Assembly (NCBI GenBank): GCA_016748015.1
Contig: JAAOMT010000577.1
Location: 63,881-127,880 of the forward strand
Reading direction: 5' to 3'
DNA length: 64,000 nt
Source of the DNA: Geosiphon pyriformis
Taxonomy: Eukaryota > Glomeromycota > Glomeromycetes > Archaeosporales > Geosiphonaceae
Shown: piece by piece, positions 10,993 to 59,657 of the stretch
Layout: each line of letters starts with the position of its first letter
Numbering within the stretch: position 1 is the first letter of the stretch
Translations under genes and position numbers: made by a program
Notes under the pieces: generated by a model
Databases searched by the model: none
The model's input: the letters and a program-made list of their open reading frames with translations, nothing else
Told to the model about the DNA's origin: nothing

Positions 10993-11625
10993 ATGTCATT
11001 TCTTCGAAGCTTATACATCGATTTCAATTCTATACTGGATCCTGGTGGTGAGGATGAAAATCTAATTGAATGTATCTCAACATGGTGTTATGACAACAAG
11101 TATAAACACGACCAGCTTTTTAAAGAACTCTATGAAACCACCCGAAAAAAATTGGAATTTTCTTGCATGCTCGCATTCTGTTATCATCATGGTATTGGGA
11201 CAGCGCAAGATCAGCAAGCTGCTTTTAAATGGTATTCGAAAGCAGCTGAAATTGGGGATTCATTTGGTCAAAATCAATTGGGTTGGTGCTTTCATACCCC
11301 GTTGGGTACTCAAATAGATTGCAATAAGGCATTTTATTGGTACGAGAAAGCTGCAGAGTCAGGAAATCCTAGTGGTCAGGCGAATCTAGGGTTTTGTTAT
11401 CGAAATGCTGTTGGGACAAAAGTCGACTTGAAAAAGGCTTTTTATTGGTATAGCATGTCGGCCAAGGCTGGAGATTGTTTGGGACAATGTAATTTTGCCC
11501 GTTGCTACTTATCAGGCTGGGGGACAGAATCAGATATACATTTAGCAATAAATTGGTACAAAAAGGCTCAAAAAAACCGATCCGAATTCGCACCTTTAAC
11601 TCTTAAGTGGTTGTTTCGAATATAA
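10993..11625 (+). CDS. Sel1-like-repeat protein, single exon
   Basis: 210 residues from ATG 10993. The N-terminal helical region (residues 1-60) contains LDPGGEDENLIECISTW and leads into CYHHGIGT. Four Sel1 units follow at 36-residue spacing, with the family signature A-F-x-W-Y-x-K-A-A-E-x-G (KWYSKAAEIGD, YWYEKAAESGN, YWYSMSAKAGD). The last unit carries DIHLAINWYKKA. Sel1 units are paired alpha helices that stack into a superhelical protein-binding scaffold, so a scaffold role is the family expectation; the partner is unknown. No signal peptide or membrane segment is visible, so it is probably cytosolic. It is one of the shortest members here and closely resembles the gene at 46.4 kb in its N-terminal region. 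Confidence 0.85.
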   Translation: MSFLRSLYIDFNSILDPGGEDENLIECISTWCYDNKYKHDQLFKELYETTRKKLEFSCMLAFCYHHGIGTAQDQQAAFKWYSKAAEIGDSFGQNQLGWCFHTPLGTQIDCNKAFYWYEKAAESGNPSGQANLGFCYRNAVGTKVDLKKAFYWYSMSAKAGDCLGQCNFARCYLSGWGTESDIHLAINWYKKAQKNRSEFAPLTLKWLFRI

Positions 11626-14600
11626 AACATGTCTTTATTGATTGGAGTCAATCGATTAATTTGGAATTCCACTTTCAGCTTATTTTTATCAGGGCATTTT
11701 AATTCCTTGATTTCCGCGAAGATTTGGACTCTGGACACCGAATACTATTTGCTTGACAAACTTTATGTTAATGATGAAATCCTTGAATTATGCCCTATGA
11801 TCTTCAAACGTATTCAATTGAATCCTTGAGCCCTCATGTCAACTTCAGATTTTTTACTTTGAACTGGATTTCCAAACAAGAATATTCAAACCATATAACA
11901 CATTAAAACTAAGGATAAACTCCAAGGTTTTTCTCAAATGAAATTAATTTTATAATGACACCTTTCGATTAAGGAGTTAATTTAACTGACCATTAATATT
12001 TCCAAGTCTTTTGTTCAGATCTCAAGGTTGCCTCATTGAAAATTTATAATCAAATCTTGAACTTTCGGAAATTGGTCTCTCACAAGCTGGTTCTGTTTTG
12101 ATTAATATTAAACAACTTATTTGTTTATAATCAAATGAATTGTAAGATCAAATATGTATCTTGGTCTCCTTAGGTGATCAAACTTTATAAGCACTTAATC
12201 AAAATTTGTTTTTGAGTGAATTTCACAAGTTTTGTTCAGAATTCGCCTTGAAATATTTTTTTAGGGTCTCATCAAGATTATTGTTCATTATTTGCAAATT
12301 ATCCTTTGACTTTTAAATATTGATCTCAAATATTCGAAAAAGTTGCATACCTGTATTTATTTTATGTGAAATTAACAAAAAAAAACTAAAATATTCAAAT
12401 CAAAATCTTTGCTTCCAAGAAAAAATTTCAGTAATTTTACCCAAATAATAAAATATTTTTGATTTGAAGCTTCCCAATCGGATCTCTCAAAATAGTTAAT
12501 AAAAGTCGAAAAAGTGAAGATGAAACAATATCTATTTTATTTTAATTATTCCCCCAACCCTTTATCAAAATAATTGATGAACTTTCCACATAAAACCCTT
12601 ATGAAGTTTTAAAGGGTAATAAGTGAATTATTCTACAGGAGTAATTTTCTAATATTAAATTTGTTTCACATTTTAGTTCTAGTCAAGTATGGAAATATAT
12701 TTCTTTAGCTCCTTAAATTTTTAAAGTAAAATTCATTGTTATAAATTGAAGTAACAAGCTAGTGAATGAGCATAAGAAAAAGAAAATAAAGAATCTCAAA
12801 GAAGTTCAAAATAAAATATAGTATGTAAATATTTTATATAAAAATCATTAAACAAATTTATGTTTAATTGAGTTTAATTTTATATAAGAAAAAGAATTTG
12901 AGATGCATTCCTTGTATAGCTAAAAAATGTTATCAATAATTTAGTGAATAATCAGGTCTAAATAAGATTAATAAATATGATAACAAATACAAAAATTAAT
13001 TGCAACAATATTATTAAATTTTTTTATAGATTGCTTACATTTTCCTTTCCTTCCACACAAAATATAGTAAAATCCCACTGAAAGCGATATTCAGAATTCG
13101 AAGATTTTTATTTTTTTATTTTTTTATTTCTTGAAAGTTTTGTTTCAATAAGATATAAAATTAATTACTTTTATTGCTTTCGATGTTATAGGCTTTTAGC
13201 AGTCTTCAGAAAATATAAGCTATAAAGTGAAAAATTTTTGCATTTCAATTGAGTTACTCATAGTTGATATCATAATATTAGAACAGTTCCGTTCTAGCAT
13301 CGAACAGGTTTGAAAAAAGCGAAGGAGCTAATGTCATCCATGAAACAAAAAATTCATATATCCTTTGCTTTCAAAATCGAATTTTACTAGAAGATGAAAA
13401 TTTATAATTTCATGTATCCTAGAGTTTCCGTAACCTGAAAACATTCTCGTATTCATGAGTGGGGTTATTTAATTCTCAAAGTTCAGATTAGATAATTTCT
13501 AATCCATTCAGAGTTCGAATTTTCTATTCGTAAAGCTACTCCAATTAAATTTTTGCTTCAGATTAAATTCTCTCATGATTTATGAGAATATATTTGCGTG
13601 TAATCTGACTAGGAAAAAGTATTCAAGTCAATCTTTAGTTTTGAAATAAATTTTACTTTGGATTTTAAACATTTGTAATTGGTGTACCTGAATTAAATTT
13701 TGATTTTAAGTTATGATTTTCATACTCACTTGTGAAACCTAATTTCAAAAAATTCCAAATCACTTCTTTCTACATTAAAGAAACAAAAAAACCATCAATT
13801 TTCTTTAAATGCTAATAAATTAGTTTTTAGGTCAAAATAATTGTTTAGAAAGAATCAAAAGCAATTAGAATTCCTTTTAGTAAAAATTAATGAGTCACAT
13901 TAAAAATTTTTTAATAAATTAAGATTTAATTGAAAATAGTAGTATTTATTCAATATTTTTCGCAACCTATTTTAAAGTATTAACTGATTTAATATTAAGG
14001 TTTTATGTACCATGATTTCTTGTATTCCGAAATTAAAAATCAAATCAAAAATATTTTTTATACTTAAAATAAAAATTGATTTTAAATTTTTCAATTATTA
14101 AACTTAGAAAACCAAAATTTTCATTTATTATTAATAATAAAAGTTTTTTCTGTTTTATATAAGCTCATTAATTGGTTAACAAACTTTATTTTTACCAAAA
14201 AAATGAATTTTTTCAAAAATAACAAAATATAAAATTATTATTTAACAAAACTAATAACAAATAATATTTAATAGTATTACATTAATTAATAATATTGTAA
14301 TAGTAGAAAATTTTATATATTAACTATAGTAATTATTTTTATTTATATCAATCGTGTATTAACCACTCTATTTTTATAATTAATTATTTGCTTGATTATT
14401 GACCTAATCAATGACTTGATTTTTGGCTTAATTTAATAATTTCTTTTTAATTGAAGCGATAAATTTTGAATATTTTTTTAGAATGCCAAATAACGTTTAA
14501 AATCATAATGGCGTGGCTAGTTGCATGTAGAAAACGCGTGATTCACATATACTTTGAGCTTATACATGTTCTTTTCATACATGTTTCATCTTGGTAAATT

Positions 14601-17465: not shown

Positions 17466-17474
17466 CAATAGACA

Positions 17475-18905: not shown

Positions 18906-19576
18906 TTATTTTCGCGATTTTGAACTTGATAAGCATCATTTGCACATTATAACTTACAAATGAAACAAACTATAAAATTGTTCAGGATGATCGTACGTTT
19001 CAAATTGTCCTAATACAATGAATTTTTTCTTTAGTTATATATAGATCTTAAATAAATATATTCCCTAAAAAAAATTATCATGAAAAGTTTCTCGTGAAGG
19101 TGTTAGCACGATCTGCATTAAAATGAACTGGTATTTTTCAGATAGACACAGATCTGGACGCCAGAGTGAAAAAGGGCTAGATCCCCTGTGCTTAGAAAAT
19201 TCTTTTAAATGAACGAGATCAATCACCAAAACTATATCGCCATTGTTATATTATTAAAAACTTATTCTGTGCACATCAAAGGGGAATCAATGTATAATTT
19301 AACTCAATAATCAACGCAATTCACTTGTTACTTAATAGCGCTACTTTCTTTTTTCAAACCTTCGCTGGTCAGCTGTACATTTTCGACGAGTGACAAGGGA
19401 TGCATGCATAGTTACATTGTGTTTCAGCGGCATGATTCATTAGCTTCATTTAAAGGATAAAATCTCGGAGAATAGATCGCTTCTTTGTTTAATAGCCGTG
19501 GTATCACTTCCCTCATGCACAATAATATTATACAGCAGTCAATCAAAGAATACTAAATTTAAGAAGATACATTGAA
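18906..19576. other. intergenic, nothing recognised
   Basis: Separates Fanzor relic 1 from the SLR gene at 19577. No supported frame or repeat. Confidence 0.5.
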
Positions 19577-21067
19577 ATGTCTTCATCAACATATGAGACT
19601 CAAGCGAACGCTGACATTTTGAGTGAAGAAATGTTGAATAGTTTATTTGCTGAAAGGCTTTGTATTGACGGTTTAACTTCTATGCGCAACTTACAACCAA
19701 GTGATGAAATACTTTTAATTGAAGAGAGTAATACGGGACATATTTCAAATTGTCAAACTCTTTCTAATAAGCTTGAGAAAAACGAATCAGAAAATTGCGA
19801 TGAAGATTCTGAGCTGAGTCTTCTAAAACCCTTTTCAATAAAAGAATTAGTCGAGTCCCCGAGACTTGAAATAAAACGGATCGAGTTGAAGTCTCAAGTC
19901 ATTCGGATAATCCCGCAACCCTTGCCGCAAAGTGAACCTGAATCAATGGTCGACAAATCGATCAAATTATTTTCGGAATATCTTGCAAAGGCAATCTACT
20001 TGGACGCCATGAAACGTGAAATCAATAATTTTCTTGTCAACAACAATCAAAATCCGCAGGAATTTGTACAATTACTTTGTAGAGATTTTCGATCGAAATC
20101 CTTATGTTTACGTGGTTTTTGTCTTGAATATGGAATTGGTGGGTACGCTGATCTAATAGGAGCATTCGATACATACAAAAAATCAGCAGAGCTAGGGGAC
20201 ACTTACGGCCAAAACTTTTTGGGACGTTGTTATAGAGATGGAATCGGGACACGTAAGAATCAAGAAACTTCTTTTTACTGGTATCAAAAATCAGCTGAAG
20301 GCAATAATTCAACTGGTGCTTACAACTTTGCCGATTGCTTCAAGTATGCTCGAGGAACCGTCAGAGATGATAAAAAAGCATTTGAATGGTATAAAAAATC
20401 AGCAGAGGCTGGAAATGCAACTGGACAATATGATTATGGACATTGTTTCGAGAATGGAAAAGGGACCCCGAAAGATGACTGCAAAGCATTACAATGGTAT
20501 GAGAAAAGCGCTGAAGGCGGAAATACATCAGCACAATGTGCGCTTGGACACTATTTGAGAAAGGGGATTGGAACTGTAGCAAATCCCGAAAAGGCTTTTT
20601 ATTGGTTTAAAAAATCTGCTTTTGCTGGTTATGCCAGAGCACAAAGTAACCTTGGTAGGTTGTAGAATGAGTTTGATTACTTTTTTTGAATTTTTAAATT
20701 GATCTTTTCAATGTTTTAAGGATATTGCTATGAAAATGGGATTGGCACAAAACCAGATATCGAAAAGGCATTTTCTTGGTATCAAAAATCAGCCAAAAGC
20801 AATGATATTCAGGGATCATGTTACCTCGGTTACTGTTATCATAGCGCCATCGGCACAAAAAAAGACAGGCAAAAAACATTTTATTGGTATAGTCGGGCAG
20901 CTGTAAATTGTGATTCGTTTGCTCAATGCAAACTCGGTGGTTGTTATCATGAAGGACATGGTACTTTACCGGATATTCACGAAGCTATCAAATGGTATCG
21001 TAAAGCTCGTGATCATAATTACAGTAGTGCTGCAGGAAGGCTCCTTTCATTATTCTTGAAGGAGTAA
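19577..21067 (+). CDS. Sel1-like-repeat protein, two exons
   Basis: Exons 19577-20654 and 20721-21067 give 474 residues. The donor GTAGGT and an acceptor TTTTAAG join in phase 1 inside the Gly codon of SNLG-YCYENG. Residues 1-170 are a long acidic leader with no known domain (ESENCDEDSELSLLK). A helical region then runs to RGFCLEYGIG. Eight Sel1 units follow from about residue 195, for example YWYQKSAEGNN, EWYKKSAEAGN and QWYEKSAEGGN, and the last unit reads DIHEAIKWYRKA. The leader and helical region resemble those of the gene at 40.5-41.8 kb and the pseudogene at 5.7-6.4 kb, so these three form a subgroup. Expected to be a cytosolic scaffold; partners unknown. Confidence 0.88.
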
Positions 21068-26527: not shown

Positions 26528-27202
26528 ATGAACTTGCTAGAATTAGCCGAAGCTTTCTATTCTGAAGAACAGCCCGGCAAATCAGACCAAAATCTTATCG
26601 AAACATGTAACCGTTGGGTAGTTAAGAATAGGATTCCTTATGAACAAGTATTCTCAGAGCTCCTAGCCGCGGTTTTGAAATACGCGGAATATAGTTGTCT
26701 GGTTGGTTTTTTTTACCATCGTGGTCTTGGCACTCAAAAAGATCTACCAGCCGCGTTCAGTTGGTACAAGAAAGCAGCAGAAGCCGGTGACGAATTTGCA
26801 CAGTATCAACTTGCTTATTGTTATCGAAAAGCACGAGGAACCCCGCGTGATTACAATTTGAGTTTATATTGGCTGAAAAAATCGGCTGAATCTGGATATG
26901 TCAATTCTCAAAGTTTACTTGGTAATGTATATTTACGAGGAGCATGGGGTATTCGAAGGGATAAGCGAAAATCATTTCTTTGGAATAAATTGGCTGCTGC
27001 TGCTGGGAATCAAGAGGCGAGAGATATGTTGGGACATTTTTACTTGGATGGACAAGGAACAGATATGGATCTTCATCAGGCATTAAGGTGGTATTCAAAA
27101 ATGAATTCACCGCTGATTATTCAGAGTGATTTTACGTTCACTTCGAATTCTCGATTGCAAAGTTTGTATTTAACAGGGCTTATCCGTTTTTACCGATCTT
27201 GA
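26528..27202 (+). CDS. Sel1-like-repeat protein, single exon
   Basis: 224 residues from ATG 26528. The N-terminal region carries KSDQNLIETCNRWVVKN, matching the D-x-x-L-I-x-x-x-x-x-W pattern of its relatives, and ends at FFYHRGLGT. Units follow with SWYKKAAEAGDEFAQ and YWLKKSAESGYVNSQ. The next unit has an extra residue (YLRGAWGIRRD) that shifts the repeat spacing, and the last unit contains MDLHQALRWYSKM. After that the C-terminus runs about 30 residues in a non-repeat tail. Four to five helical pairs are expected, forming a short scaffold. No signal or membrane segment. It appears intact. Confidence 0.85.
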   Translation: MNLLELAEAFYSEEQPGKSDQNLIETCNRWVVKNRIPYEQVFSELLAAVLKYAEYSCLVGFFYHRGLGTQKDLPAAFSWYKKAAEAGDEFAQYQLAYCYRKARGTPRDYNLSLYWLKKSAESGYVNSQSLLGNVYLRGAWGIRRDKRKSFLWNKLAAAAGNQEARDMLGHFYLDGQGTDMDLHQALRWYSKMNSPLIIQSDFTFTSNSRLQSLYLTGLIRFYRS

Positions 27203-27763: not shown

Positions 27764-27798
<35 letters not shown>

Positions 27799-29634: not shown

Positions 29635-30251
29635 CTAGCATGATCGTTTTGCCCAACGCAAACTTTCATGACAATCCATTAGGGTGCCCATTCCAGATAA
29701 GTAACATTCACCAACAATGATAATTTCCGTTTAACGCAGATTTCTTATACCAAAGGAATGCTTTATGACAATCCTTTTTACAACCAATGCCCTCTTCATA
29801 ATGATAGGCAAGGGTTTTTTGCGCAGAATTTTGTCCTGCCTCAGCAGCTTTTTTAAACCATCGAAAAGATTCTTCAAAATTTTTTTCCGTTCCAATTCCT
29901 TCATGATAGCAGGCGGCAAGTTGGTTCTGCCCAAAAATTTCCCCATTTTCTGCTGAAATTTTGTACCACTGAAATGTAGCCTTGAAATGCAATTCCATAA
30001 TGATAAAATAAACCTATTATAAGAGCAAATTCGGTTTTCGAAATTGCTTTCAATTGAAGAAGATGAAAAATATCTTTTGGATCGAGTGATTTATCTTGAC
30101 AGAATTTTTTAAGGCATTCTTGAAGGTATTCATCATATGCACCAGGATCAGGAACCAAGTTAAACGCATGCAAGAGTTCTTCAAGTATTAGCATCTCATC
30201 CTCGTGGGGGATTACAATGGTAATTTTTTCGGTATTTCCTGGTTCGACCAT
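29635..30251 (-). pseudogene. Sel1-like-repeat pseudogene, two frameshifts
   Basis: From ATG 30251 the N-terminal region matches the family (PDPGAYDEYLQECLKKFCQ, then GLFYHYGI). Right after GI, where G-T plus a few residues should stand, about five codons are missing and the frame changes. Units continue in the new frame: FQWYKISAENGEIFGQ, RWFKKAAEAGQNSAQ and LWYKKSALNGN. A second frameshift follows near 29705, and the terminal unit resumes in a third frame (GECYLSGMGTLMDCHESLRW) to a TAG at 29637-29635. Two frame breaks within 400 bases, with no splice signals that would repair them, indicate a pseudogene. Fanzor relic 2 begins about 170 bases upstream of its start. A sequencing error at one site cannot be excluded. 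Confidence 0.72.
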
Positions 30252-30424
30252 CCTTATTTTCAAGTTAGTAGAAAATATAGACTATTTAAGCCCAAGCAAC
30301 TAGAATTGTTTTATCAATTATCAAACTTGTGAAATTAGTAAGCCGATAACATAAGATAATGATATCCTGGCATGATTTTACAAAATTGCAACAATCTGCG
30401 CAATGGTCTCAAAAATTGTGGTCA

Positions 30425-40541: not shown

Positions 40542-41825
40542 TTACCTATAGCTAAAGAGCCCGAACAATACGTGTATATTTTTCTCCTGTCCACCCTTGA
40601 TACTTCTTCTGCAATATTTTATGGCTTGATGTGAATCTTTGGGGACACCATTGCCCCGCAAGTAATGCATAGCCAATTCACTTTGTCCAATGTAGTGTTC
40701 TCCATCAGCACTTTTTTGATACCAGTAGACCGCTTTTTTATAGTCAATCTTGGTTCCGATCCCTATCAAAATATAAATCGATTCTCTCGAAATATTTATC
40801 ATTATTGTTCTTTCAATCTGAGGATTTAACAAGAGCTTACCTCGAAAATAGCAAGAGGCAAGAACACATTGACCATGGGGATCTCCGGAATTCGCAGCTT
40901 TGAGATGCCAACCAAATCCTATTTTACTATCCTCCTGAACTCCAAGACCATTTCGATAACAAAAACCAACCCGATTTTGAGCTGGCTCATACCCATTTTC
41001 TGCTGACTTTATATACCAATTGAAAGCTTCCGCTTTATCCTCAGCTACTCCACAACCGTGATTATAGCAGAATCCGATTGCAAACTGTGCCATTGCATTC
41101 TCTGCTGTCATTGCAGATTTCATATACCATTGGTAAACCAAATCAGGCCTCCGCAATGTTCCAATGGCATTCTCATAACAATAGGCCAAGTTATATTGGC
41201 CAATTGTAAATCCATTCATTGCTGATTTTTCAGCCCAATAAAATGCTTTTATATCATCATTTTTCGTCCCTGTTGCATCACGATAACAGCGACATAAGAA
41301 ATTCTGCGCATATTTGTCATCACATTCGGCTGATTGGTGATAAATTTCAACTGCTTTTGATTGATTAATTGTTGTCCCAATTCCAAATTCATGACAAAAT
41401 CCTAGCAATGGCAAATGTCGGGTACCAGTTTTTGCGCGAAGAGCATTAAACAGTTCTACAGCTTCAATATCCTTCTTGCATATATTTTTGTAAATATATC
41501 TTGGTAATTTTTTGAAATACATTCCATTTTCCAATGCATCAATAAAGATTTCATTGGCAATTGCTACGATACGATCTGACCTTGACATTTCGCCATCATC
41601 GTTTGAAGGGATCGAAATTGTGGGTGAAGTTTCATTTTGCGAGCGTGAACATGGATCTACCTTTGGGCTTTTCGACAGGAGAGTGATATCCTTTACAGAT
41701 TCAGGCAGAGGAGATTTACGGGATTCATCTATGGTTATTGAATTTAAAAAATTCAATAATTCTTCCTGATCGTTTGAAATTCTTAAGCTTGGGTGTGGAT
41801 TAAATTTGGCATCAGAGAGCTCCAT
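40542..41825 (-). CDS. Sel1-like-repeat protein with a stop-free 78-nt intron
   Basis: ATG 41825 (MELSDAKF) is the first in-frame methionine. Residues 1-105 form an acidic/Ser-rich leader, then a helical region ends in GFCHEFGIGT. Exon 1 runs 41825-40841. A GTAAGC donor and a TTTTGATAG acceptor remove 40840-40763, and exon 2 is 40762-40542. Splicing restores the unit CYFRG-IGTKIDYKKA and gives about 401 residues with seven to eight units. The terminal unit reads KDSHQAIKYCRRS. The intron is a multiple of three without stops, so unspliced RNA would give a 26-residue insertion. The end AGCTATAGGTAA also holds a potential donor, so a further tiny exon is possible. Subgroup of the 19.6 kb gene. 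Confidence 0.85.
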   Translation of the reverse strand: MELSDAKFNPHPSLRISNDQEELLNFLNSITIDESRKSPLPESVKDITLLSKSPKVDPCSRSQNETSPTISIPSNDDGEMSRSDRIVAIANEIFIDALENGMYFKKLPRYIYKNICKKDIEAVELFNALRAKTGTRHLPLLGFCHEFGIGTTINQSKAVEIYHQSAECDDKYAQNFLCRCYRDATGTKNDDIKAFYWAEKSAMNGFTIGQYNLAYCYENAIGTLRRPDLVYQWYMKSAMTAENAMAQFAIGFCYNHGCGVAEDKAEAFNWYIKSAENGYEPAQNRVGFCYRNGLGVQEDSKIGFGWHLKAANSGDPHGQCVLASCYFRGKLLLNPQIERTIMINISRESIYILIGIGTKIDYKKAVYWYQKSADGEHYIGQSELAMHYLRGNGVPKDSHQAIKYCRRSIKGGQEKNIHVLFGLFSYR

Positions 41826-42750
41826 GCTTTTCAAAGATTTTCGGTTATCAAAAAATCAAGCAAAAATAGAAAATGCAAATATGTAAAAAGCGCTCAAGCA
41901 TGATTAAAATGTGATGCTCATTGAAAATAATAATTAAAAAGATAGAAGTATGTACAACTCCTAATTTGGTAAGCGTCGCACGTGACCTTACAGTTTAGCG
42001 CCAAATCAATATTCATAATTCATAAACCGAAGTTTCTCATATAACGTTAAAGTTTTTCCCTATCCATTAATCTCGCTGATGTTCCAACTCTCAGGCAACT
42101 TTTTGGGAAATTAACATACTATTTCGGAAATAAAAGTATAAATATTTTTTAATTTCCACCAAATGGATATTTATGAATTAGAATGTGAACAGCTAAATAC
42201 AAAAGAGAGCATTATAACAATTAAAAAGGAGAATATAAAACTCATCATAATGATGAGATCCAAATAATAATAATTTAATTAAAGTTATTCAAATAATCAT
42301 AATAAAATAATGTTTAATTGTTACATTTTGTCTTTAAATTACATAGTTGCAATTTACATATAGTTATTTGAAATAGAGAAAAGTTTTATGAAGTTACTTA
42401 AATTTGAATTTTATTAATAGAATATTATCGTGAATTTTTTTTAATAATTATACATAAATGTTGTGATCTTTACATCTTAAAAAAAAATGAGTGGATTTAT
42501 TTATCATATTTTCTTATTAGTCATTAATCTCTATCCATTGCTCTCTGTTAGCTTGGTCCTTTGAACCATAATAACACAAAAACAAGCCTACACCATATAT
42601 CCTTTATCTGTTATTTCCCTTTTAAAAGTGTAAGTAAAATAAGCTCTAGTGACATTGAATGAATTTTTTTTATAAATATATAAACGATTTTATTTTAAAA
42701 AAGACACTCTTACCATTTCTACTTCAAAGCAGTCTCATTCATAAAACAAG
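41826..42750. other. intergenic, AT-rich
   Basis: No supported feature. It contains the presumptive promoter of the minus-strand SLR gene and the upstream flank of the Fanzor fragment. Confidence 0.5.
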
Positions 42751-46356: not shown

Positions 46357-47163
46357 ATGACAACAACATCGTCACCAACCATTGCCAGAACGAAAAAAGT
46401 TTCTGAATATGGATATCGAGAGGTTGAATATAAAGAAATAAGCTTTATCAATCGGATAAAACAATTATTTAAAAAAAATCAAAGTGGAAAAGCAAATATC
46501 AATAGCATACAAATAACTCCGGAATCAACAGCAATAAAGGAACTGTTAAACTCACTATCTAATATTATTGACCCAGGGGCAGAAGACCAACATTTACTAG
46601 CAGGCATAGAAACTTGGTTTTCTTCGCAACCGCAAACACGCAAAAAAATTTTCCAAGAACTAAGAAAAACTGCAAAAATTCACCATGAATACAATTTCCT
46701 CTTAGCATTCTTTTACCAACAGGGAATCGGTACACGAGTACAAACCAAGAAAACATTCAAATATTATAAGCGGGCTGCTGAAAAAGATGATTATTTCGGC
46801 CAAAATCAACTAGGATGGTGTTTTCAAAACGGTATTGGGACACGATGGGATTATGATAAAGCGTTTCAATGGTACTTGTCTTCAGCGAAAGGAGGGGATT
46901 TCTCAGGGATGTGTAACCTGGCTTATTGTTATACTGATGGGACTGGTACGACAGTAGATGAAAAAGAAGCCTTTTATTGGTTTTTAAAATCGGCTGAGTC
47001 TGGCATCGCAGTATCGCAAAATGCCGTTGCGGGATGTTTCCAAAATGGAAAAGGAACTACAAAGGACATTCACAAAGCTTTATATTGGTATCGAAGGTCA
47101 TTAAAGCATGGGTATCATTTTTGGCATTTAGGCTTAAGGAAATTGATGACTAAAGGTTATTAA
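46357..47163 (+). CDS. Sel1-like-repeat protein, single exon
   Basis: 268 residues from ATG 46357 (MTTTSSPTIARTKK). The first 65 residues are basic and polar. The helical region follows with IIDPGAEDQHLLAGIETWF and ends at FFYQQGIGT. Four units come next (KYYKRAAEKDDYFGQ, QWYLSSAKGGDFSGM, YWFLKSAESGIAVSQ), and the last contains KDIHKALYWYRRS. The N-terminal region is closest to the 11 kb gene and the 29.6 kb pseudogene, sharing the D-P-G-x-x-D-x-x-L core. Probably a soluble scaffold. No intron is needed. Confidence 0.87.
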   Translation: MTTTSSPTIARTKKVSEYGYREVEYKEISFINRIKQLFKKNQSGKANINSIQITPESTAIKELLNSLSNIIDPGAEDQHLLAGIETWFSSQPQTRKKIFQELRKTAKIHHEYNFLLAFFYQQGIGTRVQTKKTFKYYKRAAEKDDYFGQNQLGWCFQNGIGTRWDYDKAFQWYLSSAKGGDFSGMCNLAYCYTDGTGTTVDEKEAFYWFLKSAESGIAVSQNAVAGCFQNGKGTTKDIHKALYWYRRSLKHGYHFWHLGLRKLMTKGY

Positions 47164-49665: not shown

Positions 49666-50859
49666 ATGACATTCTTCAGACATTGCTTTCACTTTGACTG
49701 TTCTGTTTCATTTAAAATTAGAGTCAAACGTTCTAAAAATACTAAAATTCAAAAAAACAATTTAAAAAAATCTCAAGTAGCACCCAAAATAACACCAAAA
49801 TTAACGAGAGAAATGCAATTCAGTGTATATTCTGGTGCCAAAAAAGTATTCCTAAAGATAAAAAATAGGATTGTTCCAGAATTTCATTTGACGATACCCT
49901 TGAATCACATATCAGCCCGAAATACTTGTTTTGCTCCTTACACATCTGCAAATAAAATTCCATTCACTGGTATATCGGAATTACAGAAAAAAATTTTAAC
50001 GGACCTAATGGTGTACTTCACAGACCTCACCTATATTACTGGAGAAGATGAAGACATAGCGAAACAAATAAAAACATGGATAATAAAACAACATGAAACC
50101 CACGAGAATATTTTCAATTTATTACATTCACAAAGAACAATCGCACCTTGTGCATCCCTACTTGGAATCTTTCATAAATTTGGAATTGGGACTATACCAG
50201 ATATAAACGCAGCTTTTGAAGCTTACCAAATTGCAGCAGATGGAGGTAGTTATGCTGGTCAATCACAAGTAGGATATTGTTATTACTATGGCCTTAGTGT
50301 TCAACAAAATGACGAGAAATGCCATGAATATTTTCAAAAGTCTGCCGCTGGAGGGGATATTCATGGCAAGATCAATTACGCATTTTGCTTTGCCGATGGT
50401 GTCGGGCGATCAGTTGATAAAGAAATGGCATTTAAAATGTATCGAGAGTTGGCTGATATTAATTCACCTCTCGTTTTAAGACCTTTAGCCGATTTTTATC
50501 GAAATGGGTGGTGCGTTGGAATAGATGAGAACTATGCCTTTGAACTTTACAAAAGATCAGCAGAGGGTGGAAATTGTTCTTCAAAAAATGATCTTGCTTT
50601 ATCTTATATTGCTGGTAGAGGATGTGTACCAGATTTTTGCAAGGCTTATTATTGGTTTCGTATGGCAACGGAAAATGGATTTGAATCTGGGACATTTAAT
50701 CTTGGATATTGCTATGAGAAAGGGTTTGGAGTGGTAAAAGACTTTCATGAAGCTATTCGAATGTATATCAGCAGTTTCAAAACTGTTCAACAAAGAAAAT
50801 CGCGTGAAAATTCTTTTACAGCTTTGAGAACTATATTTCGGATAGAACAGAGAGCATGA
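49666..50859 (+). CDS. Sel1-like-repeat protein, single exon, paralogue of the 58.5 kb gene
   Basis: 397 residues from ATG 49666 (MTFFRHCFHF). A basic 95-residue leader precedes the helical region, which contains CFAPYTSANKIPFTG and YITGEDEDIAKQIKTW, and ends at FHKFGIGT. About seven Sel1 units follow, more diverged than in other members (EYFQKSAAGGD, KMYRELADINS, ELYKRSAEGGN). The last unit reads KDFHEAIRMYISS. The leader motif C-F-x-P-Y-x-S-A-x-x-I-P-F-x-G and the ITGEDE core are shared only with the opposite-strand gene at 58.5-59.7 kb, marking them as a recent pair. No membrane segment. Intact. Confidence 0.86.
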   Translation: MTFFRHCFHFDCSVSFKIRVKRSKNTKIQKNNLKKSQVAPKITPKLTREMQFSVYSGAKKVFLKIKNRIVPEFHLTIPLNHISARNTCFAPYTSANKIPFTGISELQKKILTDLMVYFTDLTYITGEDEDIAKQIKTWIIKQHETHENIFNLLHSQRTIAPCASLLGIFHKFGIGTIPDINAAFEAYQIAADGGSYAGQSQVGYCYYYGLSVQQNDEKCHEYFQKSAAGGDIHGKINYAFCFADGVGRSVDKEMAFKMYRELADINSPLVLRPLADFYRNGWCVGIDENYAFELYKRSAEGGNCSSKNDLALSYIAGRGCVPDFCKAYYWFRMATENGFESGTFNLGYCYEKGFGVVKDFHEAIRMYISSFKTVQQRKSRENSFTALRTIFRIEQRA

Positions 50860-51396: not shown

Positions 51397-52716
51397 TTAA
51401 AATCGTAAAAGATAGTAAGCACCATAATATTGAACGCGATAATGCTCACCACCAAAAAAAGCATTCAGGCCATCTAAAGCACTGAGATTTCCTAATTTCT
51501 CTGCTTTTCGATACAATTTAACGGCCTCGTGCAAATCGGCTTGTGTCCCACATCCATGATGATGACAATAAGCAACATTATACAGACCACTCGAATTTCC
51601 TCCATTAGCCGATTTTTTATACCAATAAAATCCCAAAAGAGGATTCCGAGAAATAGCAACCCCGTACTGATAGCAATATCCAACTTCATTTTGTGCATAG
51701 TAATTCCCACCATCAGCCGCTTTCTTATACCAATCAAATGATAACTGAGTATTTATCTTACAACCAATTCCATTTCGAAGGCAAAATCCCAAATTCGATT
51801 CACCATCATGATTTCCCTGGTTGGCTGATATTTCATACCAATAAAAAGCTTTTGCTTCATCTTTCTCAACCCCTTTGCCCGATTGGTAGAGTCTTCCAAG
51901 TTGAATTTGTGATTCTGCATTTCTCTTCAAGGCGGCCTTATGAAACCATTCAAAGGCTTTTTGATCATCTTTAGGCACACCGATTCCTTTCAGGTAACTA
52001 TATCCCACGTTAAACATTCCATACTCGTTTTCGTGTTCTGCTGATTGCATATACCAATAAAAAGCCTTTACATAATCTTGTTTTATTCCAACTTGATCTC
52101 GATAACATGTGCCAAGATTACACGCACCTCCACTATCCCCTCCTTCAGCCGATTTCAAATACGATTGAAAAGCTTTTGTTTCGTCTTTTTTTGTTCCTAT
52201 TCCATTTTCATAGCAATATCCCAACCACCCTAGACCACCAGCATACCCTGCATCAGCCGATTTCTTGAACCAATAGAATGCCAACTCATAATCTTGTTCA
52301 GTGCCCATTGCGTCGTGATAACACCATCCAACTTGGTTAGCTGCCAATGAATCTTGCTGCGCATCCGCGGCAATATGATACCAGAAAAACATTTCCCGTT
52401 TGTTGATTTCGGTGCCGACTCCCCAACAGTATAAAAATGCTAGGAATGACGTATAACCAGGTCGAAATCGTTTGCTATATGTTTTTTCAAAAATTTGTTC
52501 GGCTTTATAATGCTGTGAATTTATACGAGCTTTAATTTCCTTAATTATAGTTTCATCGTCATCATAATGTTTATTTCCTGCGTTAAAGATGTTTAGTAAG
52601 TCGTCTACCGCCTCTGTTACGATTTGATCTTGCGTCTTGACATCGAGAACATGTTCAAATTCCTCCATCTCAACTTCCTGTATCGTCATTTCTGGGAATT
52701 TCTCTTGAGAATTCAT
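51397..52716 (-). CDS. Sel1-like-repeat protein with nine units, single exon
   Basis: 439 residues from ATG 52716 (MNSQEKF). It has the longest uninterrupted repeat array in the window. The N-terminal helical region is acidic (EVEMEEFEHVLDVKTQ) and ends at FLYCWGVGT. Nine units follow with near-perfect 36-residue spacing, for example FYWFKKSADAGYAGG, FEWFHKAALKRNAES and FDWYKKAADGGNYYAQ. The closing unit reads ADLHEAVKLYRKAEK. Nine helix pairs should make more than half of a superhelical turn with an inner concave surface. The frame remains open a little upstream of the chosen ATG without another methionine, so an upstream exon cannot be ruled out. Confidence 0.87.
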   Translation of the reverse strand: MNSQEKFPEMTIQEVEMEEFEHVLDVKTQDQIVTEAVDDLLNIFNAGNKHYDDDETIIKEIKARINSQHYKAEQIFEKTYSKRFRPGYTSFLAFLYCWGVGTEINKREMFFWYHIAADAQQDSLAANQVGWCYHDAMGTEQDYELAFYWFKKSADAGYAGGLGWLGYCYENGIGTKKDETKAFQSYLKSAEGGDSGGACNLGTCYRDQVGIKQDYVKAFYWYMQSAEHENEYGMFNVGYSYLKGIGVPKDDQKAFEWFHKAALKRNAESQIQLGRLYQSGKGVEKDEAKAFYWYEISANQGNHDGESNLGFCLRNGIGCKINTQLSFDWYKKAADGGNYYAQNEVGYCYQYGVAISRNPLLGFYWYKKSANGGNSSGLYNVAYCHHHGCGTQADLHEAVKLYRKAEKLGNLSALDGLNAFFGGEHYRVQYYGAYYLLRF

Positions 52717-53296: not shown

Positions 53297-54325
53297 TCAG
53301 GCTGATGTGAAAATGGAGGCTATTACTTTTGGGGCTGTTTCATTTCCTACTTGAATTGATTTTCGATACCAGCGAATCGCCTCATGAATATCTTGAACCT
53401 TACCCCATCCATACCGGCAGCAATTTGCATAATTGTATAGACCGGAAATATCTTTTGATTCTGCAGATCTTTGAAACCAATGACGCGCTTTTAAAGGTTC
53501 TTTTTTAGTCCCGATTCCTGAAGAATGAAAGTTTTTAATGAGAGCTCCGAGCTAGCGAAACTTTTTTTCTGGTAAAAAAATTTTTTGCTTAAATTTACCC
53601 TCATGATAGCAATAACCGACTAAATTTTTCCCCGTAGGATTTCCCCCATTCGCGGCTTGTTGATGCCAATATAAAGCTTTCATGGGATTACGAGTTGTAC
53701 CAATCTCATCACGATAGCAATCACCAAGATATAATTGTGCAAAAACGTCCCCGGCGAGAGCAGATTTTTCATACCAGAAGAAAGCTTTTTTCACATCCTG
53801 TTCAGTTCCCAGTCCTAGATTCCAAGATTTGGGGTAATTGGAGGTTAGGTTTATACGGGAATATAAAAGAGTGACAATTTAAAACTTGCCTGTTTGATAA
53901 AAGTACCCAAGATTGCATTGTCCTCTGGCACAACCACCTTCCGCTGATTTCTTATACCATTCAAGAGCTTTCATCACGTCTTTCTCGCATCCTAATTGAG
54001 CATAATAGCACCAGCCAACTTGATTCTGAGCAAACGGATCATCTAAATCGACGGCAGCAGATTGATATAAAGTCAACGCGTGTGAATAAGAAATTTTGGT
54101 GCCGATTCCGTAAAAGTAGAAAGAGGCAAGTAGAGATTTATATGCACAGTTATAAGGCTCGTATTCAATCAGCAATTCGAAGGCTTCTTTAGGAGATAGA
54201 TTATTGCGCTCAAGATATTTTTTGATCGCTTCTTGTACTTTTTCGTCGTTTTCAGCGTTTATGATGCAGGTATTGAAAATATAAAGAATAGCTGGCAGAG
54301 GTTTCATTGATATTGGTGTAGACAT
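53297..54325 (-). CDS. Sel1-like-repeat protein, three exons, GC-AG intron
   Basis: Exons 54325-53890, 53814-53599 and 53517-53297 give 290 residues. The N-terminal region (residues 1-72) contains AENDEKVQEAIKKYLERN and ends at FYFYGIGT. The first intron starts with GCAAGT, not GT, and ends in CTAG; no usable GT donor is nearby. The second is GTAAAT to CTTCAG. Both cut a unit at the same place, in phase 1 inside the Gly before I/L-G-T (YQTG-LGT and YHEG-IGT), so the middle exon is 216 nt, exactly two 36-residue units. The terminal unit reads QDIHEAIRWYRKS. All junctions restore the repeat consensus, which is good evidence for the model. Confidence 0.85.
53815..53889 (-). other. GC-AG intron
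   Basis: A 75-nt intron with the donor ACAG/GCAAGT and acceptor AATCTAG. Removing it joins YFYQTG to LGTEQDVKKAF and restores the Sel1 unit. GC donors normally need an otherwise strong consensus, as found here. Confidence 0.75.
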
Positions 54326-56159
54326 TATGATGAGATTTTGGTTAGTCGAAAAATTATTGGAAACTTTTAATAAATTGAAAAATGACGAAACTTATTGAGG
54401 GGAAGGGATATGAGTACTAGATTTCTTTCAACTTATAAGCACCTTCGTCTGCACGTGAAAGGCCACGTTGAAAAAAACTCTGATTGATTTTTCTTTGTAT
54501 TCTGACCCGTATCTCTTAAAAAATCATATATCTTATGCTTCATCTCGGGGGATTCGATTATTCTGGTAACAACGAAACTCTATTGTCTGTTTGGAAACAA
54601 ATATAAGACGGTTTTTGAACATTTAGAACAAATTAAATTCCAAGTTTGTTCGTGATCGGCCTGCATCGAGGTCCAAGCAAATTGCTGTGATCTGTGACAC
54701 AGCGTAAGGAGATCAGGCCATCCATTGAAGGTTCGCGATGATTGGAGCATAGATGAGTCGCGAACTGCAAGAAGTTTGCATTATCAGATAAATTGAGAAA
54801 TGGCTATTCAATTTCGGTTTGCCAAAGTTGGCAGAATCCGACGTGATGTTCCTGATAACCATATCAAAAAGAAAAAAGTGTGGTTTTTAGATTTGGCTAT
54901 CGTGAATGGTGAAATTTTCAGTGAAAGCAAACAATCTCAAGTATGAACAAAAGGTATCTTCAGCTGCCAAGGTATTAGTCCATGTTTGTGATTGTATTAT
55001 GGGTTAGCAAAAGTGTGAATTTCAATTTACAATAAGATCTTTAAATTTCAAAGGACAACTAGAAAATATGGCTGTGTTGCCAGTATTAGAATCTGTCAAT
55101 TTTTTCGCTAACAATGTGACTCCAATAATAAGAATCCCAAAGTCACATTTGCATATAGTTTTCTAGAATTTTTTTTGGATCGGGTTACTAAAAATATCTG
55201 ATTTCTAAACAGAAAACATTTGTGGAATCTTTGAAAAATTTAATCATATTTTACAATTAGCAAATAAGTTATTCTTTTTTCAGCCAAACTTTAATTAAAT
55301 TTAAGTTTCATTGTAAAACCTTATTTTAAGTCAAGTCATATTATTGGACGTTTATTAAAAATTTTCCTAGAAAAATTACCCCTTATATGCCTTTGGTTAG
55401 ATACCAAAAAACCATGCAACTATTTTAGTTTCTAAAAAAAATTTTTGATGGGGCTTAGATTTTGACGTTAAGTCAATTATTGATAGTGAGTTTTTGCCAT
55501 GCATTTCGTAAAAAGACAATTATTTTAACACAAGAATAATTTTTTAGCTTGGTGGGTTCCCATTTTTCTTTTGATCGAACAATTTGCAATTAAAAGAACG
55601 GTTACGTCAGAATAACGCCATAATCAAATAACCTTTGTAAATAGAGAATAGTGAGATAATAAAACAAATGAAAGTATTTGAACATATGGAATATTTGTTT
55701 TTTTTTGGTAGAAAAAATTAGAATGATTTCTCTGAAATTTTTCTGAATTTCTCCCAGAGGCTTTTATCTTCGGAACATCAATACACGAAGGACATAAACT
55801 GCGTGCAAGAATCATTGAAAGTAAACATCAGTTTTAAATCGAACGGTTTTTATATAGTGAAATTGAGCCCAAAATATCCAGACCTCAATTTTCTTGAGGA
55901 TCAGCTTAAATTCTCTAATTCGGCTGATTGTTACAATATAAGAAAATAGAACGCCTGAGCTGCCTTTGGATTTTGATAAGTTTAAATGACCGTATCAACA
56001 TTGCAATCTTGAACCATACTATTCCTGAGGTATCACTTTTCTATTAGATTCTGCATCCTGGATTTCAAAAGAGGCTCTTGTTTTCAAATCCTATATTCAG
56101 CAAATCTTTTAGATAATAATTTGTAGTCCACACTAAGCACTAGCTAAGACTACTATTTC
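54326..56159. other. intergenic with two unassigned coding-like pieces
   Basis: On the minus strand near 54600-54430 an open piece contains EMKHKIYDFLRDTGQNTK, and on the plus strand a 49-codon frame starts near 54800 (MAIQFRFAKVGRIRRD). Neither matches a family I know. The rest is AT-rich. Confidence 0.35.
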
Positions 56160-57718
56160 CTACATGAGCTCAAGTAATGTCCCAAGAGTATCTCCTGAGC
56201 GTTATTTTCATCTCTGAGCATTATTCTAGCCCATAATTCCGAGTTGTACACTTTAATGCTTTTTGTTATCACACCAGCCACAAGTTTTGGATGTATAAGC
56301 CATATTTTGGATGACAACAAGGGCTCCTAACTCAGGGCGTTGTCTATCAGATGTTGACGGGAAACGGTAATGCGTCCATAACATTTTGCGGAGTCTTTCT
56401 TGTCTTATGATTCATTATGTCTAACATTTCAAATGAAATGAAGAAGATTGTGTCAAACTCACGCGTGAAGAATATGACCACCTTTCTGTGGATTTTACTC
56501 TGCAGACGCACAATCCCTCGTAGTATGTGCGACTGTTTTGTTGAGTCGACAGGAGCTGCTTTGAAGTAGAGAAAGCCAGTCTGAAAGGAGGTTATCCATA
56601 TATTTTTGTGCAGGCAAACAATTCATCCGATGCACTAAAGCCTATCTTATCCACACCTTCAGATAAAAACTCTCAACTGAAACGTGTGCGAAACACCAGA
56701 ATAGAGACTGGATAGATGGAGTTTTCCGCCCGGGTTTTGCGGACTTGTTATTGTGTCTCATAGACCAAGGAATGTTGTTTTGTCGAGAATAGGCAAGTTT
56801 ACCGTCAGATTTAATCTTGCGCGACCGCCTATTCTTTTTACAAAAAAGGTAATTAAAAATTTAGTCATAGAAATTTTTTTCAAGAAACTAAAATTTTTCC
56901 TTGTCTCGACATGCATAAGCATGCAACCTCAAGAATATGCCCAGACGGATAACCAAAAAATAATTTAAAAAGAGGACATTTTTGTTGAACTGTTATAGAA
57001 TTGGCCATTTCTTTGCTATGATATCATTTTGCTTCTTTAACAATATAATTCTTTGTGTTCCATCCACTACAGTATTAAAGGCAAATCTTGCGAAGTCCAC
57101 CCGCCGCCTCAAGAGGTGCTTCTGGAACACCTTGAGCACCAATGTGTGGCTGAGAGCGTCATCGCTTTTTACATCATGCAATTTTGTTTGTTCTAATTTT
57201 CTCTTTTGTAGTTAGCTGCTTGTCGTCCTTTCATTCTGTAGATGAAGACAGTGTTGATGACAAAATATCTGCTTTCTTCGAGCAAGAGGATGCGACGTTG
57301 ATACAATCTATTCAAAAAATACACATTACTTCGTGAACCATTAAGACCAGCATATTAATTATACATAAAGTTACATCTATATGCTTAGAAAAAATTCCGT
57401 TTTCTTGGCTAGCTTCTTAGAAAGCTTGTGCTCATCGAAGGTTTTATGGTCGAAGAGAACCACGAGTTTTGCAGAAGAGAGGGAGAAGATGTTGAGCAGT
57501 TATAACTTCTAAGATAATCGCGCGACTTGCTCCTTCCCATAAGGCCTCAAGTCTTGTTGGAAGTTGACACCCCGAGTGGATATTGCTAAGCCGCTTTTGT
57601 CACCAGAGATTCTCTTTTTGCTTGGCCACAGAGTCACAGAAGTAACCTTTCTTAATAGCGGGGGCAGTGATAATGGCTGGATTTGGAAGTTGGAGAAAAA
57701 GGTGATATCTATTGTCAC
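56160..57718 (-). mobile_element. Fanzor (eukaryotic TnpB-like) relic 4
   Basis: Minus strand. The N-terminal part near 57718-57510 aligns with relic 1 (ITFF, then PPLLRKVTSVTLWPSKKR). At 57490-57430 comes the KLVVLFDHKTFDEH block shared with relics 2 and 3. At 57180-57040 is DFARFAFNTVVDGTQR, matching relic 1. Near 56800-56700 are KIKSDGKLAYSRQNN and SIQSL-like codons at the eroded RuvC-I. At 56460-56400 FEMLDIMNHKTRKT keeps the RuvC-II Glu. At 56240-56190 IMLRDENNAQEI is the weakened final motif. This is the most decayed of the four copies. It sits between two SLR genes. Confidence 0.68.
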
Positions 57719-58511
57719 GATTTAAGTATAATTATTATTCTGATCCCAGTAAAAATATTTTGACTAACCTATAATAAAATTCAATTATTCTTATCCCAGT
57801 TCATTTTGTTGTTGATCCAATGTTAAAGTTTAAAAAAAACACTGTAAATAATGAGATTCATAATTTAACAGAATGGAAACACCTCTGGTATATATTTGAT
57901 ATTTAAAATTGTATTTAAAACTTTGGATATTAAGGTGGACAATGTATAAATCTTAATTTTAAGTGACCAGTTATTTCTTATCATTGAGATATTTTCGAAT
58001 CAATGTTTTGATTACAAAAATAAAAAAGATAAAGGATTTGAAAGAAAAGGCCTGTTCTTGTTATTGAATTGCTTTTCTTCATCCCAAAAATTGAAAGGTG
58101 TTAAGCCAAAGTTTTGATCGAATATTTATATCAAATACGGGCTTTTTAACTTGTACACTGAATAAATTTTTTTGAAACCAGTACCTTTATTATTATTATA
58201 ACTATTTATTATTAAATAAATAAGAAAAAATTATTAGTTGAAGGAATTGGCATTATATTTCTGTTGGCGAAGGTTTGTTTTGCAGAATTTGCTATTTCTA
58301 AAGAAGCTTTAGAATTCGTATTGATAATTAAAAATTTCAGCAAATATCAGATGGGAGTTGGAATCAATTTTTTCGGTAATGACCAAGTTTCCCCAAATTT
58401 CAAAATCGAACTACTGGAAATTGTGTGGGACTCAAATAAAATGAAGATATATCAAAAATTTTTTGATAATTATAGACTTGGAAAGCCATTTCTTTTGTTC
58501 TAACATTAAAA
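57719..58511. other. intergenic, one open piece without ATG
   Basis: At 58220-58503 a plus-strand frame is open (contains QMGVGINFFGNDQVSPNF) but has no ATG near its beginning. It could be an exon of an unrecognised gene or chance. Confidence 0.35.
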
Positions 58512-59657
58512 TCAAGTAGCTTCTATAGTTTTGAAAAGAATCTTTAATGCTTGATCGCAAGTATAGGGACGATATTTATTGCCCTTGCTATAATACCTAA
58601 TAGCCTTATGAAGATCCAAAGGAACTCCGAGACCACCTTGATAACAGCGAGCTGTATTAAATGCTCCACATTTTGATTCATCTAAAGCGGCTTTGCGAAA
58701 CCAAAAAACTGCCTTTAATAAATCCTTTCTTGTTCCCAGGTTATTCAGATAACTCCAACCCAGATCATTTTTTGAGGTTGGGTTACCACCCTCCGCTGAT
58801 TCTTTATACAATTGAAATGCTCGCGTCTCGTCTAATGGCACACCAAACCCATTTCGGTAACATACAGCAAGGCTTCTTAATGCTCCAGGATATTTTGTCT
58901 CTGCTGCCTTTTGATATATCTGAAATGCCTTATGTTCATCTTTTAGGACACCGTATCCTTTAAAGTAATAATAAGCGAGATTCAATTGTCCATGAATTTC
59001 ACCATTAACAGCTGATTTTTGAATATATTCCAGCGATTTTTCCAAATTTGCTTTGATCCCAAGACCTTGGCGATAACAATAACCGGTCTGGGTTTGAGCA
59101 AAAACGTTACCCAGATCTGCTGCAAACCTATAACGCTTAAAAGCCAACTCATAATCTTTATTGGTTCCAATTCCATAGTTTTGAAAAAACCCTGATAGGC
59201 AAACACAAGGAGGTATAGACGATTGTCCTTCTAACAACTCAAAAATTTCCTCCTCTATCTGGTTTGCTTTTTTAATAAAAGTTTTGAGTCCAGCTGCGAT
59301 AAATTCATCCTCGCCAGTAATAAGTGTAAGTTTAGTGAAAACTCCCAAAAGGTTTGTAATCAAGTTTTTTTCGAATGAATTGAGCCCTATAAACGGTATT
59401 TCACTGGCACTTAAATATGGCGAAAAGCAATTTTCTGGGAAGAGAGCTCTCTCTTTTTGATTTATCGATTTAGATCCAAATTTTGCTGCTATACGCTTAT
59501 AAATAAACAAGGGTGAGTTTGATTTGTTACCAAGATTTGCTTTTTTGGAAGATAAATGGCGAGACACTAATCCATTGTGTTCGTTTCCTTTCTTAGCGTC
59601 GATAGGATTTGTGAACTTTTGACGAAAAATTTCAAAACAATTCTCGACAAATGGCAT
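58512..59657 (-). CDS. Sel1-like-repeat protein, single exon, paralogue of the 49.7 kb gene
   Basis: 381 residues from ATG 59657 (MPFVENCFEIFRQKF). A polar, basic leader is followed by CFSPYLSASEIPFIG and LITGEDEFIAAGLKTF, then SGFFQNYGIGT. Seven units follow (KRYRFAADLGNVFAQ, EYIQKSAVNGEIHGQ, QLYKESAEGGNPTSK), and the terminal unit reads LDLHKAIRYYSKGNK. Leader, helical region and unit count parallel the plus-strand gene at 49.7-50.9 kb, so the two arose by an inverted duplication or a duplication plus inversion. Intact. Confidence 0.86.
   Translation of the reverse strand: MPFVENCFEIFRQKFTNPIDAKKGNEHNGLVSRHLSSKKANLGNKSNSPLFIYKRIAAKFGSKSINQKERALFPENCFSPYLSASEIPFIGLNSFEKNLITNLLGVFTKLTLITGEDEFIAAGLKTFIKKANQIEEEIFELLEGQSSIPPCVCLSGFFQNYGIGTNKDYELAFKRYRFAADLGNVFAQTQTGYCYRQGLGIKANLEKSLEYIQKSAVNGEIHGQLNLAYYYFKGYGVLKDEHKAFQIYQKAAETKYPGALRSLAVCYRNGFGVPLDETRAFQLYKESAEGGNPTSKNDLGWSYLNNLGTRKDLLKAVFWFRKAALDESKCGAFNTARCYQGGLGVPLDLHKAIRYYSKGNKYRPYTCDQALKILFKTIEAT

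What the first reader, a model, noticed from the sequence alone, without database searches (positions are those of the whole stretch)
10993..59657. SLR family shares an N-terminal cap and a terminal-unit D-x-H-x-A signature
Apart from Sel1 units, the members carry a helical region of about 60 residues (often D-P-G-x-x-D-x-x-L or E-D-E-x-I-A, then a Trp/Leu-rich helix, then G-F-F-Y-x-x-G-I-G-T), and the last unit has D-[ILFS]-H-x-A-[ILV] in all intact genes. This looks like a capped solenoid with fixed ends and a variable number of middle units. The cap resembles the linker between kinase and Sel1 arrays in Glomeromycotina kinases, so these may be kinase-free versions.
Basis: partly seen in the sequence, partly recalled or inferred. 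Interest (0 to 1): 0.7.

Follow-up and report, generated by a model that had tools for sequence, protein, structure and literature searches.

The report
Capped Sel1 solenoids with fixed ends
This fungus-like genome carries a large family of spring-shaped scaffold proteins whose two ends are always the same while the middle varies in length, and the same front end also sits on proteins that carry a kinase on one side or the other.

Summary
All 11 Sel1-like-repeat (SLR) genes in the window, two of them broken, share an about 55-residue N-terminal region. Pfam, PDB sequences and profile comparison do not match it to Sel1; it is predicted as a three-helix N-cap. In all 9 intact genes the last unit carries D-x-H-x-A. 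At that position H occurs in 10/10 terminal units but 1/51 internal ones. The pattern G-x-G-[AVTI]-x-x-D-x-H-x-A occurs 66 times in the 124.7-Mb genome, the reversed control 0 times. Of 20 loci found by cap alone, 17 have D/N-x-H in the last unit; two exceptions turned out to be kinase-cap-SLR genes. AlphaFold2 (pLDDT 90) places cap and tail as continuations of the superhelix. The cap is homologous to the stretch between kinase and SLR array in at least seven genes, and to the start of roughly 70-90 cap-SLR-kinase genes. The D-x-H end is nearly absent from kinase-linked genes (1 of 25). "Capped solenoid, same module as the kinase proteins" is therefore supported. Whether kinases were lost or gained is unresolved: linkage changed at least 3-4 times on the tree. 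Function is inferred: stand-alone scaffolds or adaptors.

The parts
10993..11625 (+). Gene b: cap + 4 SLR units + tail (210 aa, single exon); the start of the reported range
   Evidence: ORF; Sel1 E 9e-35; AlphaFold2 pLDDT 90.4
10996..11166 (+). N-cap of gene b (three helices in the model)
   Evidence: alignments A1/A3; model helices 3-12, 21-34, 39-52; found by the kinase-type cap at E 2.6e-5
11533..11625 (+). C-cap of gene b: DIHLAI unit end, then L-x-x-L-F tail helix and stop
19526..21067 (+). Gene c: cap + 8 SLR units in two exons (ORF 19526-20665, intron, 20720-21067)
19949..20107 (+). N-cap of gene c
   Evidence: A3; cap HMM
20972..21067 (+). C-cap of gene c (DIHEAI ... LLSLF)
26528..27202 (+). 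Gene d: cap + 4 SLR units
26531..26698 (+). N-cap of gene d
   Evidence: A3
27068..27202 (+). C-cap of gene d (DLHQAL)
29656..30281 (-). Gene e: SLR gene broken by frame breaks; cap intact, last unit D-C-H-E-S
30027..30188 (-). N-cap of gene e
   Evidence: A3
40542..41855 (-). Gene f: cap + 8 SLR units; one in-frame intron-like insert near 40.77-40.85 kb
41409..41573 (-). N-cap of gene f
   Evidence: A3
40542..40637 (-). C-cap of gene f (DSHQAI ... LFGLF)
46357..47163 (+). Gene g: N-terminal extension, cap, 4 SLR units
46531..46701 (+). N-cap of gene g
   Evidence: A3
47065..47163 (+). C-cap of gene g (DIHKAL)
49666..50859 (+). Gene h: basic N-terminal extension, cap, 6 SLR units
49990..50157 (+). 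N-cap of gene h (GEDEDIA type)
   Evidence: 49% identical to k
50740..50859 (+). C-cap of gene h (DFHEAI ... LRTIF)
51397..52716 (-). Gene i: cap + 9 SLR units
52450..52623 (-). N-cap of gene i
   Evidence: A3
51397..51537 (-). C-cap of gene i (DLHEAV)
53297..54391 (-). Gene j: cap + SLR units in three exons; introns in the Gly codon of G-x-G-T
54134..54298 (-). N-cap of gene j
   Evidence: A3
53297..53392 (-). C-cap of gene j (DIHEAI)
58512..59657 (-). Gene k: disordered N-terminal extension, cap, 6 SLR units; the end of the reported range
   Evidence: model
59199..59366 (-). N-cap of gene k (helices 94-113, 117-130, 135-143 of the model)
58512..58616 (-). C-cap of gene k (DLHKAI, tail helix 364-380)
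5656..6487 (-). Gene a: SLR gene with a frame break and a stop; cap at 6194-6361, last unit D-K-H-E-T
62..737 (-). Probable N-lobe exons of a kinase-cap-SLR gene whose rest lies left of the window (L062); the fragment alone has no Pfam hit
   Evidence: C-lobe PF07714 E 1.3e-5 in L062, N-lobe fragment none

Best explanation
The window holds members of one large family of stand-alone Sel1-like-repeat solenoids with two specialised ends. N-cap: about 55 residues, three helices that extend the superhelix ahead of unit 1. C-cap: a modified last unit (D-[IVL]-H-[EKQ]-A-[IL]-[KR]-W-Y-R-K) followed by a short L-x-x-[IL]-F helix that stands for the first helix of a missing next unit, then a stop. The ends are fixed and 3-9 units between them vary. 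The cap plus array behaves as one exchangeable module: it stands alone, behind a kinase (kinase-cap-SLR) or in front of one (cap-SLR-kinase), and the cap always stays at the N side of the array whichever side the kinase is on. Most likely working (inferred): the caps seal the exposed ends so that the array is a soluble protein-binding scaffold. The kinase-free members act as adaptors, regulators or competitors in the same intracellular signalling network as the SLR-kinases. Shown: homology, positions, architectures, predicted fold. Inferred: capping energetics, partner binding, role.
For: Cap in 11/11 window genes; a cap-only HMM gathers 59 members from the genome. The cap is not a Sel1 unit: hhalign probability 0.2, no Pfam hit, no PDB sequence relative. 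Terminal H 10/10 against 1/51 internal in the window, 45/46 against 5/229 in fetched loci. Cap-selected loci that had missed the strict pattern still show D/N-x-H in the last unit in 17/20 (read by eye); two of the three exceptions carry a kinase upstream. Tail length from D to stop clusters at 30-40 aa. Terminal units also differ at positions not used for selection: 20 becomes I/V/L, 24 F to I, 28 to R, and the near-invariant A31 is lost. AlphaFold2 of gene b: pLDDT 90.4, pTM 0.84; gene k repeats the cap and tail helices. The full model including cap and tail overlays internal stretches of solved SLR superhelices, Z 20.5 over 187 residues. Cap homology with kinase genes: probability 95%, E 3e-8, reversed control 0.1; reciprocal single-sequence hits.
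Against: Function is not tested by anything here. The cap could be a very diverged SLR/TPR-like unit, since it overlays one structurally. L099 shows no D-x-H end in the stretch read, L106 has N-L-P-H-A, and L062 is kinase-linked yet has the D-x-H end. AlphaFold2 used only 5-6 sequences and the tail helix of gene k scores 66-74.
Confidence: 0.66

Rival explanations
1. Kinase-free descendants: the ancestral protein was kinase-cap-SLR, and the window genes lost the kinase and acquired the D-x-H end.
For: The cap is exactly what stands between kinase and array in at least seven genes. Kinase-linked caps appear in four places on the cap tree. L062 next to the window is kinase-linked with a D-x-H end.
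Against: The tree is unrooted and weakly resolved. Most cap diversity sampled is kinase-free, and the big kinase clade is a recent, homogeneous expansion (60-80% identical) nested among kinase-free genes such as c and f, which fits kinase gain at least as well.
Confidence: 0.25
2. Ordinary Sel1 proteins: the cap is a decayed repeat and the D-x-H end is only shared ancestry without a structural role.
For: The cap overlays an SLR-like unit in the model; the genes are paralogs; SLR expansion in Glomeromycotina is well known (PMC9453076).
Against: No sequence relation of cap to Sel1. The His is kept while neighbouring positions vary and terminal units are only 30-40% identical. Positional exclusivity is about 97% against 2%. 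The cap stays at the N side of the array even when a kinase precedes it.
Confidence: 0.12
3. Skt5/Chs4-like chitin synthase regulators or SEL1L/Hrd3-like ERAD adaptors.
For: Both are eukaryotic SLR proteins without catalytic domains; SEL1L is among the solved relatives.
Against: No CaaX box at any window C-terminus. No long hydrophobic segment seen in the window proteins and no ERAD domain in Pfam (by reading). Dozens of members with unique caps.
Confidence: 0.04

Closest known systems
Sel1-like repeat proteins (Pfam PF08238); solved examples 6ok3, LpnE 6deh, HcpC 1ouv, c5321 4bwr, SEL1L 5b26
   Same: 36-residue helix-turn-helix units and the same superhelix
   Different: None of these chains is matched by the cap profile; the D-x-H terminal unit is not a feature of the Sel1 profile
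Expanded Sel1 and kinase (high-copy signalling) gene families of Glomeromycotina such as Rhizophagus irregularis; MLKL-like kinase proteins with Sel1 repeats
   Same: Large SLR and TKL-kinase expansions, Sel1 joined to kinase (PMC8647823, PMC8778642, PMC9453076)
   Different: The papers read count domains only; no end caps, no D-x-H terminal unit and no account of kinase side are described in the passages found
eEF2 kinase (kinase followed by a C-terminal SLR domain; 7shq, 8gm4)
   Same: Kinase coupled to an SLR solenoid (own knowledge); structural match
   Different: Alpha-kinase, not a PK_Tyr_Ser-Thr kinase; no homologous cap detected
Skt5/Chs4 chitin synthase regulators
   Same: Fungal SLR scaffold without catalysis (PMC12561907)
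   Different: CaaX prenylation box and disordered regions; window proteins lack CaaX

Membership tests
Sel1-like repeat proteins (PF08238) | Tandem 36-residue Sel1 units above the Pfam cut-off | tested here: met
   Nine window ORFs, E 1e-14 to 3e-72
Sel1-like repeat proteins (PF08238) | SLR superhelix fold | tested here: met
   Gene b model: Z 20.5 to 6ok3, 187 residues, rmsd 2.6
SLR-kinase family of this genome | Homologous N-cap directly before the first SLR unit | tested here: met
   hhalign probability 95.1, E 3.1e-8; reciprocal hit of gene b by the kinase-type cap, E 2.6e-5
SLR-kinase family of this genome | Protein kinase domain in the same gene | tested here: not met
   No kinase in any window SLR ORF; only L062 at the left edge is kinase-linked
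SLR-kinase family of this genome | Array end without D-x-H-x-A | tested here: not met
   Window 10/10 terminal H; kinase-linked genes 1/23 by script, the one being L062, and 1/25 with L096/L109 and L100/L108
Skt5/Chs4 regulators | C-terminal CaaX box | tested here: not met
   Window C-termini read directly
SEL1L/Hrd3 ERAD adaptors | Signal peptide, membrane segment, ERAD-specific domains | tested here: inconclusive
   No such Pfam domain and no long hydrophobic segment by reading; no dedicated signal-peptide predictor was run
Glomeromycotina Sel1/kinase expansions | Presence of the same caps in named Glomeromycotina genomes | not testable with these tools
   No named fungal genomes or proteomes are held

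The most novel reading that the evidence does not exclude
The cap plus array is the recognition module of a large, fast-evolving intracellular receptor-like repertoire. Kinase-linked members (including pseudokinase forms such as L062) give the output, and the D-x-H-ended, kinase-free members are dedicated partners, helpers or decoys, in analogy to sensor/helper systems. The conserved terminal His end would be a docking site that marks the kinase-free class.
Probability: 0.12. Interest if true: 0.8.

Novelty: new variant of a known kind. Interest (0 to 1): 0.55.

Why it matters
Sel1 and kinase expansions are among the most striking and least understood features of arbuscular mycorrhizal genomes; the papers found here mostly count domains. 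Two sequence-defined ends allow genes to be called correctly (start, end, number of middle units), classes to be separated (D-x-H-ended and kinase-free against kinase-linked), and a concrete question to be asked: do the kinase-free members regulate the kinases with which they share a cap?

Tried and rejected
A scan of prokaryote genomes with the cap alignment was not possible: no stretch conserved enough. PDB sequence search with the cap gave only chance matches, E about 1 and higher. Sel1 as the origin of the cap by sequence was rejected (hhalign probability 0.2). A first regex for the kinase-type caps failed and was corrected. In the first tree L096 was labelled kinase-free; after its upstream kinase was found it was relabelled and the tree rebuilt. 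Skt5-like identity for L096 and L100 was considered because of their low-complexity N-termini and rejected when a kinase was found upstream. Kinase neighbours were looked for only with the L062 kinase and PF07714 top hits, so the number of kinase-cap-SLR genes is a lower bound.
Full report
Setting. The window is G000:C387:63881-127880 of a 124.7-Mb, 406-contig assembly. Published work reports very large Sel1 and kinase expansions in that group: a mean of 3400 Sel1 and 1500 Pkinase_Tyr motifs in Glomeromycotina genomes, 1066 and 349 in Paraglomus (PMC9453076); Sel1-like and kinase genes as high-copy signalling families in Rhizophagus irregularis (PMC8647823); MLKL-like homologs found only in Glomeromycotina and carrying Sel1 repeats (PMC8778642). 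None of the passages found describes end caps.

The observation. Eleven SLR genes (a-k) lie in the window; two (a, e) are broken. Nine ORFs score E 1e-14 to 3e-72 for Sel1. The region before the first unit aligns in all eleven, with nearly invariant F and L positions and an overall pattern [ED]-L-L-x-I-F-x(9)-D-x-x-I-x-x-x-I-x-x-W-(about 12)-I-F-x-L-L. The "G-F-F-Y-x-x-G-I-G-T" part belongs to the first Sel1 unit. The last unit carries D-x-H-x-A-[ILV] in all nine intact genes.

Is the terminal signature real? Aligning every unit to a unit profile, His stands at unit position 21 in 10/10 terminal units of the window against 1/51 internal ones (Fisher 1e-10). A DNA pattern for G-x-G-[AVTI]-x-x-D-x-H-x-A occurs 66 times in the genome and the reversed pattern never. 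I fetched the stretches around the hits outside the window as loci L009-L064. In 45 of 46 genes with three or more detected units the H unit is the last (9.6 expected by random placement), with 5 of 229 internal units bearing H. Because those loci were chosen for the motif, I also took 20 loci found by the cap alone and lacking the strict pattern. Read by eye, 17 of 20 end in D/N-x-H (for example DKHEA, DVHEV, DLHQC, NLHKA). Of the three exceptions, L099 appears cut short, and the other two turned out to carry a kinase upstream (L109 for L096, L108 for L100). From the D to the stop is mostly 30-40 residues, usually with L-x-x-[IL]-F near the end. Terminal units also differ at positions not used for selection: 20 is I/V/L, 24 shifts from F to I, 28 becomes R, and the near-invariant A31 of internal units (93%) is lost.

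Is the cap real and distinct? A cap-only HMM iterated on kinase-free loci gathers 59 members. It has no Pfam match, only chance PDB matches, and no profile similarity to a Sel1 unit (hhalign probability 0.2). AlphaFold2 on gene b (six window paralogs as alignment) gives pLDDT 90.4 and pTM 0.84, with cap helices 3-12, 21-34, 39-52 before unit 1 and a tail helix 200-209 after the last unit. Gene k repeats this (cap helices 94-113, 117-130, 135-143; tail 364-380 at pLDDT 66-74; residues 1-72 at pLDDT under 50). The whole model, ends included, overlays internal stretches of solved SLR superhelices (6ok3 Z 20.5, 187 residues, rmsd 2.6; 6deh 19.8; 1ouv 19.7). So cap and tail continue the solenoid geometry at both ends.

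Relation to kinases. Kinase hits lie downstream of many long arrays on the same strand. Reading such loci (16 fetched) gives cap, 8-34 units mostly of N-x-E-K-A type, then a PK_Tyr_Ser-Thr kinase (unit counts). The kinase-type cap query finds roughly 70-90 close copies, and also window gene b at E 2.6e-5 and gene L027 (C269) at 7e-6. A second arrangement, kinase-cap-SLR, is present in at least seven genes: L062 just left of the window, L076, L101, L102, L104, L096/L109 and L100/L108. Cap of kinase-free genes against cap of kinase genes: hhalign probability 95.1, E 3.1e-8; reversed control 0.1. The cap stays on the N side of the array regardless of the kinase's side, which argues that it serves the solenoid, not the kinase. 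One gene, L103, is kinase-SLR with no cap seen. The D-x-H end is nearly confined to kinase-free genes: 1 of 25 kinase-linked (L062) against 27 of 28 kinase-free in the sets not selected for it (Fisher 8e-13). By reading, L062 lacks the HRD and DFG aspartates and so looks like a pseudokinase; its exon boundaries are unproven.

Direction of change. A tree of cap plus first unit (65 rows, 104 columns, many forks unresolved) needs four changes of kinase linkage, at least three forced by well-supported branches; the main kinase clade is nested beside window genes c and f. The root is arbitrary, so "kinase lost" and "kinase gained" both stand.

How it most likely works. The ends of a solenoid expose hydrophobic faces (general knowledge of repeat proteins). 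A three-helix N-cap and a modified last unit with a truncated helix would seal them, leaving the middle free to change in number (3-9 units detected in kinase-free genes). The kinase-free members would then be soluble scaffolds or adaptors, plausibly sharing partners with, or competing with, SLR-kinases that carry the same N-cap. The structural part rests on prediction; the functional part is inference.

Verdict. A real, genome-wide, two-ended SLR family that is a new variant of a known kind (Sel1 repeat proteins), with a defined link to kinases.

Noticed in passing
window 17560-17700 (-), also fragments near 56256-56411 (-): TnpB/Fanzor-like nuclease remnants: Cas12f1-like TNB zinc-finger domain (E 5e-9 at 17560-17700; below the cut-off, E 0.002, at 56.3 kb). 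Similar-looking broken fragments lie near 30.4-31.9 and 42.7-44.4 kb, where Pfam gave no significant hit.
   Followed up: partly
genes c, f, j; 20665-20720, about 40770-40846, about 53590 and 53880: Introns inside SLR arrays sit repeatedly in phase 1 in a Gly codon (of G-x-G-T or L-G-x-C-Y), including a possible GC-AG type in gene j; this would help repeats duplicate as exons.
   Followed up: partly
L062 (C387:62263-64244) with window 62-737 (-): Kinase-cap-SLR gene with a D-x-H end whose kinase seems to lack the HRD and DFG aspartates (pseudokinase), read from exons.
   Followed up: partly
window 38602-40021 (+); also 1460-2679 (+): Two class 3 lipase-like genes; the one at 39575-40018 has PF01764 E 1.5e-10; the other is similar by reading only.
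   Followed up: partly
L104 against L065-L074: A kinase-first gene (L104) has a cap that groups with caps of the kinase-last clade, so the kinase appears to have changed sides at least once.
   Followed up: no
L108 (C257:875000-878600): Kinase-cap-SLR gene with a very long Ser/Thr/Asn/Pro-rich tandem linker between kinase and cap.
   Followed up: no
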